Shown piece by piece: positions 1,957 through 46,384 of a stretch of DNA of 64,000 bases. Numbering within the stretch: position 1 is the first letter of the stretch; each line of letters begins with the position of its first letter. A program made the translations under genes and the position numbers. The notes under the pieces were generated by a model that did not search any database, was not told where the DNA came from, and saw nothing but the letters and a program-made list of their open reading frames with translations. This DNA is from Tildeniella nuda ZEHNDER 1965/U140 (lineage in GTDB: Bacteria; Cyanobacteriota; Cyanobacteriia; Leptolyngbyales; Leptolyngbyaceae), in contig JAHHIG010000001.1 of NCBI GenBank assembly GCA_019358895.1, positions 620,001 to 684,000 on the forward strand, given 5' to 3'.

Positions 1957-2006
1957 TGCTACCTTTTGAGCGCGGTGTCTCTAGTTTAGGCAATTAGGGT
2001 AAGGAA

Positions 2007-2232
2007 GTGAGGAGTGAGGAGTGAGGAGTGAGGAGTGAGGAGTGAGGAGTGAGGAGTGAGGAGTGAGGAGTGAGGAGTGAGGAGTGAGGAGTGAGGAGTG
2101 AGTTTGAAGTTAGTTGTGTTCCTGTAACACCGTTCTCCCAGGCTTCCTCTGCCTCCTTTACTCTCTCTGCTCTCTGCCTCCTGCCTTCTGCCTTCTGCCC
2201 TCTGCCTCCTGCCCTCTGCCTCCTTTTCTAGA
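2007..2232. repeat. 7-nt tandem repeat plus CTCTGCCTCCTGCC-type block
   Basis: Positions 2007-2103 consist of about 14 near-perfect copies of the heptamer GTGAGGA. From about 2135 to 2230 a pyrimidine-rich block of CTGCC/TTCTGCC/CTCTGCC units follows. Both types recur across the window. They give open frames with repetitive translations, which I regard as non-coding. Confidence 0.9.
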
Positions 2233-33799: not shown

Positions 33800-36190
<2,391 letters not shown>

Positions 36191-38860: not shown

Positions 38861-39017
38861 TAGCGGTTCCCATTAGAGTAGTACAAGGGCTGGGGTTTTA
38901 AGGCAGAAGGCAGGAGGCAGAAGGAAAGCCGACGTTCTCTTTAACTTCTGCCCTCTGCTCTCTGCCCTTTGCCCTCTGCCTCTTTGCAACTGTACTTCAC
39001 TGGATTAGGAACCGCTA
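38861..39017. repeat. Long hairpin repeat with TAGCGGTTCC termini
   Basis: The ends TAGCGGTTCC (38861) and GGAACCGCTA (to 39017) form an imperfect 26-bp terminal inverted repeat including AGTAGTACA/TGTACTTCA. Between them a GGCAGAAGGCAGGAGGCAG arm pairs with CTTCTGCCCTCTGCTCTCTGCC. This is the clearest complete copy of the repeat whose fragments appear elsewhere. It is probably mobilised as a MITE. The rest of the gap 38469-39124 holds no gene. Confidence 0.75.
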
Positions 39018-39677: not shown

Positions 39678-42587
39678 ATGACGGATGCTGCCTCTACCTC
39701 TGAGTTTACAAATGGGTTGCCAGAACGCTTAGTGAAACACGCGGTACGCTATGCCGACCATCGATCGGTCGATCGCGCCTTGCTCACACCCATGATTCGT
39801 CATTACGTGGAGCTGAAAGATCAGTATCCTCACGCTCTATTGCTCTATCGCGTGGGCGATTTTTTCGAGACGTTTTTTCAAGATGCGATCGCCATTGCTC
39901 GTGAGCTAGAGCTGATTTTGACCGCGAAAGATGCAGGCAAAGAAGTCGGCAAAGTACCGCTGGCAGGCATTCCCCATCACGCGCTCGATCGCTACTGTGC
40001 GGTGCTGGTCGAGAAAGGCTTTGCGATCGCCGTTTGTGACCAGATGGAAGATGCTGCCGAAGCTCAGGGACAGCTTGTGCGGCGCGATATTACCCGCGTG
40101 ATCACTCCCGGCACCATTCTCGAAGAAGGGATGCTCAATGCTCGTCGCAACAATTTTTTAGCCGCAGTTGTGATCGCGGGCAACCATTGGGGGCTGGCGT
40201 ATGCCGATGTCTCTACTGGCGAATTTCTCACCACGCAGGCGCAAGAGCTAGAGCAGTTAACCCAGGAATTGATGCGCTTACAGCCATCTGAAGTATTGGT
40301 GCCTACCAACGCGCCCGATCTAGTCAGCCTGCTGCGACCAGGAGAAAAATCAGAGCATTTGCCGGATTGCCTGCCGCCCCAGTTTTGCTACACGCTACGA
40401 TCGCATGCTCCCTTTGTCCTGTCAGAAGCCCGCTATCGCTTGCTGCAACGCTTTCGGGTGCGATCGCTCGAAGGCATGGGCTGTGAACACTTGCCACTGG
40501 CAGTCCGGGCAGCAGGCGGACTGTTGGAATATGTGGAAACCAGCACAGAGAGAGGCATAGGAAGGGATAAAGGCGAACGGATAAAGGCTAAAAAGCAGGA
40601 AGTGACGGATCAAGACGATCGTCAAGACTCTTCTCCTGCCTCTCCTCTCCCCTCTCTCCTCCATCCTGCCGCCCTTAAAACCTTTCCCCTACAGCCGCTC
40701 TGCACCTATACACTCACTGAGTATTTGGTGATTGACCACCAGACGCGGCGCAATCTAGAAATTACGCAAACGGCGCGGGATGGTACCTATCATGGGTCAT
40801 TGCTGTGGGCACTTGACAAAACAGTGACGGCGATGGGCAGTCGGGCACTGCGACGCTGGCTCCTGCAACCATTGCTGAAGCTAGCACAGATTGACGATCG
40901 CCAGGAGACGATCGCCGAACTGGTTGAAAACGGCTCTCTGCGCCAAACGCTACAACGCCTGCTCAAGCAAATCTACGACCTGGAACGGTTGGCGGGTCGT
41001 GCTGGTTCAGGCACCGCGAATGCCCGCGATCTGGTCGCGCTGGCAGACTCTCTTGACAAACTACCCGATTTGGGGCGACTGGTGGAAGGAACGCGATCGC
41101 GCTACCTGCAAGACCTCCAGACCGTGCCGCCGATTTTAGAGCAGTTGGGTCAGCATCTCCACGCTCATCTGGTCGAAACGCCACCGCTGTACCTCACGGA
41201 TGGCAACCTGATTCGCTCAGGAGTCAACGCCCAGTTAGATTCCCTGCGTGAGCAAGTCGATGCCGATCAAGACTGGATCAGGAACCTGGAAGTGGTCGAG
41301 CGCGATCGCACAGGCATTCCCACGCTCAAAGTGGGTTATAACAAAACCTTTGGTTACTACATCAGCATTTCTCGCGCCAAAGCGGGGCAGCAGGTGCCCG
41401 ATGGCTACACCCGTAAGCAGACTCTCACTAGCGAAGAGCGCTACATCACTCAAGATCTCAAAGAGCGAGAAAATCGCATTCAATTGGCGCAAGACAGCTT
41501 GAACCATCTGGAATACGAAATTTTTGCCGCGTTGCGATCGCAGGTTGGTGAACAGGCAGAACTCATCCGTACGGTGGCACGATCGGTGGCGGCGATCGAC
41601 GTCCTTTGCGGGTTGGCAGAAGTAGCGGTGTATCAGGGCTACTGCCGCCCTGAAATGCTTGCTAACCGTGCAATTCAAATCCTCGAAGGTCGTCATCCTG
41701 TGGTGGAGCAATCATTGCCAGCGGGTTTCTTTGTGCCCAATTCAACGGGATTAGGGGGGCAGGGGTCAAAGAGCGGAGGGCAGGAAACCGCAGAGACGCA
41801 GAGGCGCGGAGATTTAATTCAAAACTCAGAACTCGAAACTCAAAACTCTTCCCCATACCCCACACCCCACACCCCACACCCCACCCCCGATCTGATTGTT
41901 CTTACCGGACCCAACGCTAGCGGCAAAAGCTGTTATCTCCGTCAGGTGGGGTTGATTCAACTGATGGCTCAGGTGGGCAGCTTTGTTCCAGCGCAGACAA
42001 CGACACTAGGCGTTTGCGATCGCATCTTCACCCGTGTCGGCGCAGTCGATGATCTGGCAACCGGGCAGTCCACTTTTATGGTGGAAATGAATGAAACGGC
42101 AAATATTTTGAATCACGCCACACCGAGATCGCTCGTCCTTTTGGATGAAATTGGACGCGGAACGGCAACATTTGATGGGCTGTCGATCGCCTGGGCAGTC
42201 GCCGAACATCTAGCAACGGAAATCGGCGCTCGCACAATTTTTGCGACCCACTATCACGAACTCAACGAGCTAGCGTCGATTCTACCGAATGTCGCTAACT
42301 ATCAAGTTGTGGTCAAAGAATTGCTGGATCAAATTATCTTTTTGCACAAGGTACAGCCTGGTGGTGCCGATCGCTCCTACGGCATCGAAGCGGGACGGTT
42401 GGCAGGTTTACCCGCATCCGTGATTCAACGAGCGCGGCAGGTGATGGGGCAGATTGAGAAACATAGCAAAATTGCGATCGGCTTACGTAAAGGTGGTCGA
42501 ACTAATCACTCTGCTCATGAAAAGAATGGCAAAGCGTATCAGGTTAGTCAACCGATCGAACAGTTAGATATTTTTGGTGAAGGGTAA
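39678..42587 (+). CDS. mutS: DNA mismatch repair protein MutS, with two repeat-derived insertions
   Basis: This 969-residue protein is about 80-100 residues longer than typical cyanobacterial MutS. It recognises mismatches and starts repair with MutL. The mismatch-binding domain near the N-terminus has [12 protein letters not shown] with the Phe-x-Glu motif. The ATPase has Walker [11 protein letters not shown] at about 744-752 and Walker [12 protein letters not shown]. Two insertions come from dispersed repeats: residues about 291-330 (nt 40551-40668), and about 690-736 (nt 41746-41888), just before Walker A. Both keep the frame open. The second contains TAETQRRG, also found in the decarboxylase. 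The start is ATG 39678. Confidence 0.94.
40551..40668. repeat. Repeat-derived in-frame insertion 1 in mutS
   Basis: GGATAAAGGC-type units and a CCTCTCCTCTCCCC block, the same composition as the intergenic repeats, are found between the conserved parts of the MutS core. The open frame is continuous. Confidence 0.7.
41746..41888. repeat. Repeat-derived in-frame insertion 2 in mutS
   Basis: The stretch contains the 26-bp AACCGCAGAGACGCAGAGGC-type segment (41786-41811), AAAACTCAGAACTCG-like units, and about four CCCCACAC units. It lies directly before the Walker A motif of MutS. Confidence 0.9.
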
Positions 42588-46015: not shown

Positions 46016-46228
46016 TTAAACAGGCTCTGGAATCGTTTGTGGAATGGTTCCAGGTACCGTTTGTGGAATGGTTCCAGGGACAGGCTCTGGCACTGGTCCA
46101 GGAATCGGTTCCGGTACGGGTCCAGGAATTGGCTCTGGCACTGGTCCGGGAATTGGTTCTGGCACAGGTACAGGATTAGGAACCGGTGGCTCAGGCATCG
46201 GCACTGGTATATCAGGTGTATAAATCAT
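46016..46228 (-). CDS. Proline-rich repeat protein (PEPIPGPV units)
   Basis: The 70-residue product starts at ATG 46228 with MIYTPDIPVP and continues with three exact PEPIPGPV units, followed by variants ending GTIPQT. Short proteins of this composition are found in cyanobacteria, and the unit is regular at both protein and DNA level, so it might also be a DNA repeat. No clear ribosome-binding site is seen. I do not recognise its function. Confidence 0.45.
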   Translation of the reverse strand: MIYTPDIPVPMPEPPVPNPVPVPEPIPGPVPEPIPGPVPEPIPGPVPEPVPGTIPQTVPGTIPQTIPEPV

Positions 46229-46384
46229 GTGGTTTTACTTGAGTGGTGGCACCTTTCTACCGTAGAAAGCGGTGGGAAAGATTACATCTTCCTAACTAGG
46301 CATCACCTTTGGTGGAGAGACTTCTGTACGTGTCGCCAATCAGTGCGATGGTAGGAAAACGTTCACACAACAGCAACCTGCTTC

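What the first reader, a model, noticed from the sequence alone, without database searches (positions are those of the whole stretch)
40551..41888. Two in-frame repeat insertions in mutS, one next to Walker A
MutS has two segments made of intergenic-type repeats. The second contains CCCCACAC tandem units directly before the ATPase P loop. A repair gene carrying tandem repeats could be prone to replication slippage, so copy-number changes could switch mismatch repair. That last part is inference.
Basis: partly seen in the sequence, partly recalled or inferred. Interest (0 to 1): 0.75.

Follow-up and report, generated by a model that had tools for sequence, protein, structure and literature searches.

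The report
Repeat DNA inserted in-frame in mutS
Two floppy loops of a cyanobacterial DNA-repair protein are encoded by the genome's own scattered 7-letter repeats, but such repeats also sit in-frame in many other genes, including the DNA ligase gene, so this looks like tolerated repeat DNA and not a switch for mutation rate.

Summary
mutS (39678-42587, 969 aa, all five MutS domains) has two in-frame segments made of the genome's dispersed repeats, about 40539-40682 and 41745-41888. The second ends six codons before GPNASGKS and carries a 7-nt (not 8-nt) tandem, CCCCACA, 28 bp perfect. Both are predicted disordered.

The switch reading is weak. Repeats of the same kinds lie in-frame in 26 other long ORFs found here, and in ligA, 3.5 kb away and essential in tested bacteria. 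All interior copies examined (39 loci, 27 ORFs) run in sense orientation. Across relatives the segments differ widely in length (mutS site 2: 21-315 nt), yet the frame is kept in 164 of 168 gene-site observations, and neither out-of-frame mutS owes its shift to a repeat tract. Lengths correlate between genes and with heptad load, partly through ancestry.

Best reading: tolerated in-frame invasion and turnover of heptad repeats at disordered loops. Slippage by one or two units would truncate MutS before its ATPase, so null alleles are possible; no strain or read data were at hand to test this. New variant of a known kind: cyanobacterial heptad repeats, in-frame like Rickettsia RPEs but without a hairpin.

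The parts
39678..42587 (+). mutS ORF, 969 aa
   Evidence: ORF list, Pfam MutS_I-V, match to solved MutS chains
40539..40682 (+). insert 1, about aa 288-335, between MutS domains II and III; contains a 14-nt repeat (GAACGGATAAAGGC x2) and a C-rich part; borders approximate
   Evidence: predicted disorder at 293-302 and 307-333
41745..41888 (+). insert 2, aa 690-737: G-rich part, CCGCAGAGACGCAGAGGCG element, AAACTC-type units, CCCCACA heptads
   Evidence: predicted disorder at 697-734
41851..41888 (+). CCCCACA heptad tandem, 5.4 copies; perfect 28 bp at 41857-41884
   Evidence: TRF, exact lag-7 run
41907..41930 (+). Walker A (P loop) GPNASGKS, aa 744-751
   Evidence: motif name recalled
33929..36127 (-). 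ligA ORF (NAD-dependent DNA ligase), 732 aa, a comparison gene with an insert of the same build
   Evidence: Pfam, match to solved DNA ligases
35225..35401 (-). repeat insert inside the ligase adenylation domain, aa 243-301

Best explanation
The two extra segments of MutS are copies of the genome's dispersed heptad-type repeats that came to lie, in-frame, in two loops able to take extra residues, and that turn over there by gain, loss and replacement of units. A 7-nt repeat spells the same seven-residue peptide in all three frames of a strand, so an array without a stop is open in every frame. The insert is tolerated as long as its total length stays a multiple of three and the peptide is soluble and disordered; selection removes the rest. 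Shown: repeat origin, in-frame state, presence in many other genes, sense orientation, length changes between species, predicted disorder. Inferred: order of events, near-neutrality, and the cause of turnover (slippage, gene conversion or copying of a whole element).
For: Inserts match dozens of other places in the genome. 39 of 80 loci examined lie inside an ORF of 300 aa or more, 39 of 39 in sense orientation, in 27 distinct ORFs, mutS included (some copies were hit by two searches). A similar insert sits in ligA. Frame kept in 164 of 168 gene-site observations (mutS site 1 55/56, site 2 54/55, ligA 27/28, MutS2 28/29). Lengths correlate between sites and genes, rho 0.55-0.82, and with heptad matches per genome, rho 0.53-0.69. 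Inserts are predicted disordered. In 10 of 11 perfect arrays within ORFs the strand read is the only open or the more hydrophilic one.
Against: With only one genome of the window's genus kept, the correlation with heptad load falls to rho 0.49, 0.41, 0.16 (ligA, p 0.49) and 0.40, so ancestry carries part of it. Some distant relatives have long site-2 inserts without this heptad class (G052 315 nt, G046 219 nt), so loop growth has other sources too. No empty site with target duplication was shown, so insertion as a unit is not proven. A role of the inserts is not excluded.
Confidence: 0.83

Rival explanations
1. Contingency locus: slippage in the CCCCACA tract switches MutS off and on and gives transient mutators; the tract is kept for that.
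For: Unit not a multiple of three, sited before the ATPase; one or two units more or less remove the P loop. A 6-bp tandem in Salmonella mutL is reported to act so (PMC2955026, passages). A relative's ligA is out of frame inside a heptad insert.
Against: The same kind of insert in ligA and many other genes; short perfect tract (28 bp); no mutS of 55 out of frame through its tract; in the order search 38 of 39 genomes with both flanks read through in one frame (read from its table, largely the same genomes).
Confidence: 0.07
2. The inserts have a selected role as disordered linkers, for example in partner binding or in tuning the ATPase.
For: Long inserts at both sites are seen in all 7 genomes of the genus (site 1 114-204 nt, site 2 75-237 nt).
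Against: Sequence and length are not conserved even within the genus, and the same peptides occur in unrelated proteins.
Confidence: 0.07
3. Assembly or sequencing error at repeats.
For: Repeats are hard to assemble; some relatives show shifts spread through genes (G041, G013, G015).
Against: The frame is open through both inserts here and in nearly all relatives, single-contig assemblies G019, G027 and G030 included. The exact unit number could still be off.
Confidence: 0.02

Closest known systems
Heptanucleotide repeats of cyanobacteria (STRR; G-rich heptads of Nostoc PCC 7120, PMC4692102, passages)
   Same: 7-nt tandem units, dispersed, mostly outside ORFs (37 of 48 perfect arrays in the sample).
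   Different: There described as under-represented in coding regions; here composite copies are a part of many proteins. STRR unit sequences are recalled and were not compared.
Rickettsia palindromic elements (RPE; PMC10969869, passages)
   Same: Dispersed repeats in-frame inside unrelated protein genes, with recurring peptides.
   Different: The four coding inserts folded here show no hairpin beyond shuffles (z -0.40 to +1.60); they are heptad-based and vary in length.
mutL 6-bp tandem switch of Salmonella, and repeats in mutL/mutS proposed as switches (PMC2955026, passages)
   Same: Tandem repeat in a mismatch-repair ATPase gene whose unit change would inactivate it.
   Different: There alleles were built and mutability measured; here the unit is 7 bp in a dispensable-looking loop and no allele was seen.

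Membership tests
MutS | Domains I-V and P loop intact | tested here: met
   Pfam MutS_I-V; GPNASGKS at aa 744-751
Cyanobacterial heptad repeats (STRR type) | Tandem 7-nt units, dispersed in the genome | tested here: met
   48 perfect arrays of 21 bp or more in 464 kb
Cyanobacterial heptad repeats (STRR type) | Unit sequences of the published STRR families | not tested
   Original papers not held or not read
Rickettsia palindromic elements | In-frame within unrelated ORFs | tested here: met
   27 ORFs, ligA
Rickettsia palindromic elements | Palindromic, hairpin-forming | tested here: not met
   mutS 1 and 2, ligA and MutS2 inserts z -0.40, 0.21, 1.60, 1.18; one intergenic stretch, 38885-38990, does fold, z -2.35
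Phase-variable contingency locus | Repeat in an ORF with a unit not divisible by three | tested here: met
Phase-variable contingency locus | Out-of-frame alleles through the tract among relatives | tested here: not met
   mutS site 2: 54 of 55 in frame, the exception shifted outside the repeats; one genome per species only
Phase-variable contingency locus | Copy-number change within a clonal population | not testable with these tools
   No reads and no strains of the same species

The most novel reading that the evidence does not exclude
This genus carries a non-palindromic composite repeat (purine-rich heptads, AAACTCA units, C-rich heptads) that spreads into coding genes, replication and repair genes among them, and is expressed as a disordered peptide. 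Its 7-nt period makes it readable in every frame: a frame-indifferent, coding-tolerant repeat unlike the hairpin RPEs. Whether it moves as a unit or grows in place is open.
Probability: 0.5. Interest if true: 0.6.

Novelty: new variant of a known kind. Interest (0 to 1): 0.45.

Why it matters
Heptad repeats usually treated as intergenic are here part of many proteins, the DNA ligase included. A repeat inside a repair gene is therefore not by itself evidence of a mutator switch. The window also offers a natural comparison, the same kind of tract in mutS and in the normally essential ligA, in which slippage and selection could be measured side by side.

Tried and rejected
Hairpin element as the origin: not supported for the four coding inserts folded. 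Frameshifts in relatives as evidence for switching: G010 mutS has an extra base about 20 nt past insert 2, and G041 mutS a one-base shift past insert 1 in a gene with several shifts; both lie outside the repeats. G014 ligA is out of frame inside the heptad insert, with a stop in the upstream frame: real unit change or assembly error, not decided. G013 MutS2 is out of frame in the insert region, without a heptad array, in an assembly with another shift. Array lengths inside and outside ORFs do not differ significantly (p 0.31); one of the 11 arrays inside ORFs (C11, aa 38 of an AcrB-type ORF) may lie ahead of the true start. The reversed-pattern control is not a true control, because it matches the same arrays in another register; its counts are overlapping matches, not arrays. 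In one search the reversed control still gave 15 + 16 against 31 + 26. Rows first left out: one search measured 26 of the 29 genomes with a MutS2 match and 27 of the 28 with a ligA match; the other four (G015, G035, G037 for MutS2; G015 for ligA with a partial flank) were added and have both flanks in one frame. mutS site 2 of G032 is cut by a contig end, and G025 and G043 gave no mutS match. The genome scan with MutS in the named collection served only for the structure alignment. Papers: passages seen of PMC2955026, PMC4692102, PMC10969869 and PMC4748335; others only as search listings. Searches for such inserts in cyanobacterial genes showed none in their listings; the original STRR, SDR and RPE papers are recalled or seen as references only.

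Full report
What is there. The window lies on contig C9 of a 6.08 Mb genome, a cyanobacterium to judge by its relatives (one search lists cyanobacteria as the nearest named MutS). Its mutS ORF runs 39678..42587 on the + strand and encodes 969 aa with Pfam MutS domains I-V. Two stretches have no counterpart in solved MutS chains. Insert 1 lies between domains II and III. Insert 2 (aa 690-737, 41745-41888) ends six codons before GPNASGKS. Tandem Repeats Finder gives a 7-nt unit, CCCCACA, 5.4 copies at 41851-41888; the perfect part is 28 bp. In an AlphaFold2 model (mean pLDDT 80.2, 26 sequences) residues 293-302, 307-333 and 697-734 fall below 50, and site 2 lies between strands 688-692 and 739-743.

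The inserts are dispersed repeats. Insert 2 as DNA has 47 matches in the own genome at E<=1 and insert 1 has 46, the query itself included. A 19-base part of insert 2, with up to 3 mismatches, occurs 31 + 26 times; the reversed control gives 15 + 16. I examined 80 loci: 30 of the 47, 20 of the 46 and 30 of the 57. Of these, 39 lie in the interior of a reading frame of 300 aa or more, all 39 in sense orientation; 3 lie near a frame's end and 38 in no such frame. Some copies were hit by two searches, so the safer count is 27 distinct ORFs, mutS among them. Ten of these proteins went to Pfam: MutS2 (MutS_V, Smr), a RadA-like ATPase, an HMGL-like/LeuA-type synthase, an IPP transferase (MiaA), an SbcC-like protein, AnmK, an AMP-binding ligase, an FGE-sulfatase/DinB_2 protein, PriA and an FAD oxidoreductase; names beyond the Pfam titles are my inference. 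In four the Pfam match is broken into two or three stretches (MutS_V, HMGL-like, IPPT, AnmK).

The comparison gene in the same window. ORF 33929-36127 (-) is the NAD-dependent DNA ligase. It carries an insert of the same build (aa 243-301; window 35225-35401) inside its adenylation domain. LigA is essential in the bacteria where this was tested (established knowledge, not tested here). A frameshifting tract in such a gene is hard to explain as a useful switch, so the tract in mutS does not need that explanation either.

Relatives. Of 58 genomes, the own one included, 56 gave MutS. Between fixed flanks, site 1 is 30-204 nt and in frame in 55 of 56; site 2 is 21-315 nt and in frame in 54 of 55. 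Within the genus (G000-G006) site 2 is 75-237 nt. A search of the order (42 genomes held, 40 with a match, most of them the same genomes) shows both site-2 flanks in 39, of which I read from its table 38 in one open frame, G010 being the exception. ligA is in frame in 27 of 28 and MutS2 in 28 of 29 genomes with a match. Over the four sites that is 164 of 168. The four exceptions: G010 mutS and G041 mutS, one-base shifts outside the repeats; G014 ligA, inside the heptad insert; G013 MutS2, in the insert region of an assembly with another shift.

Genome-wide turnover. Insert lengths correlate between sites and genes (rho 0.55-0.82 over 25-55 genomes) and with the number of C-rich heptad matches per genome (rho 0.53-0.69 over 26-38 genomes). 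With only one genome of the window's genus kept, the latter falls to 0.49, 0.41, 0.16 and 0.40, so shared ancestry carries part of it. In the genus the site-2 insert mostly shows the same order of modules (purine-rich heptads, AAACTCA-type units, C-rich part), but unit types change between species, G003 is short and lacks the middle part, and G002 and G006 have a further stretch nested in the AAACTCA part. Long site-2 inserts of other sequence exist in distant genomes (G052, G046).

Why the frame survives. Since 7 = 1 mod 3, a heptad array spells the same seven residues in each frame of one strand. In a 464 kb sample of the genome (window plus 400 kb) there are 48 perfect arrays of 21 bp or more; 11 lie in ORFs (33 bp at most), 37 do not (97 bp at most), the overall length difference not being significant. 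In 10 of the 11 the strand read is the only open one or the more hydrophilic one. This fits selection for stop-free, soluble, disordered peptides; it is an inference from a small sample.

Could it still switch? In silico, a change of one or two units gives 736-749 aa proteins without the P loop; three units keep the frame. So null alleles by slippage are possible, as reported for the 6-bp tandem of Salmonella mutL (PMC2955026, passages). Nothing here shows that they occur in this mutS or are selected. No strain-level or read data were at hand.

Known or new. Heptad repeats of cyanobacteria are known and were described as under-represented in coding regions (PMC4692102, passages). In-frame dispersed repeats are known from Rickettsia (PMC10969869, passages). 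The inserts here share the in-frame state with RPEs but show no hairpin. The listings of my literature searches showed no description of such inserts in cyanobacterial housekeeping genes; the library holds open-licence papers only.

Noticed in passing
window 35225-35401 (-), in ligA 33929-36127: Heptad-repeat insert inside the adenylation domain of the DNA ligase; a shorter extra stretch (about aa 110-117, AVSGQQSAD-like) is also absent from solved ligases.
   Followed up: partly
L021 (MutS2 gene), about aa 427-476: MutS2 of the same genome carries such an insert directly before LVLLDE (Walker B by recall); site length 12-270 nt in the 26 genomes, and about 357 nt in G037.
   Followed up: yes
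L290 (ligA of relative G014): ligA out of frame inside its heptad insert, with a stop in the upstream frame; unit change or assembly error.
   Followed up: partly
L059 and L060 (mutS of G002 and G006), insert 2: A further stretch (begins CTCTAG, ends GCGCTA) is nested between AAACTC units and is absent from the window's copy.
   Followed up: no
window 2006-2102: Longest perfect heptad array of the window, AGTGAGG, 97 bp, outside ORFs.
   Followed up: no
window 38885-38990: Intergenic heptad stretch just before mutS that does fold as a hairpin (z -2.35, 3 of 200 shuffles as good), unlike the coding inserts.
   Followed up: partly
window 46083-46175: 24-nt tandem repeat, 3.9 copies, in a region whose only ORF of 80 aa or more (46037-46354, 105 aa) looks doubtful.
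   Followed up: no
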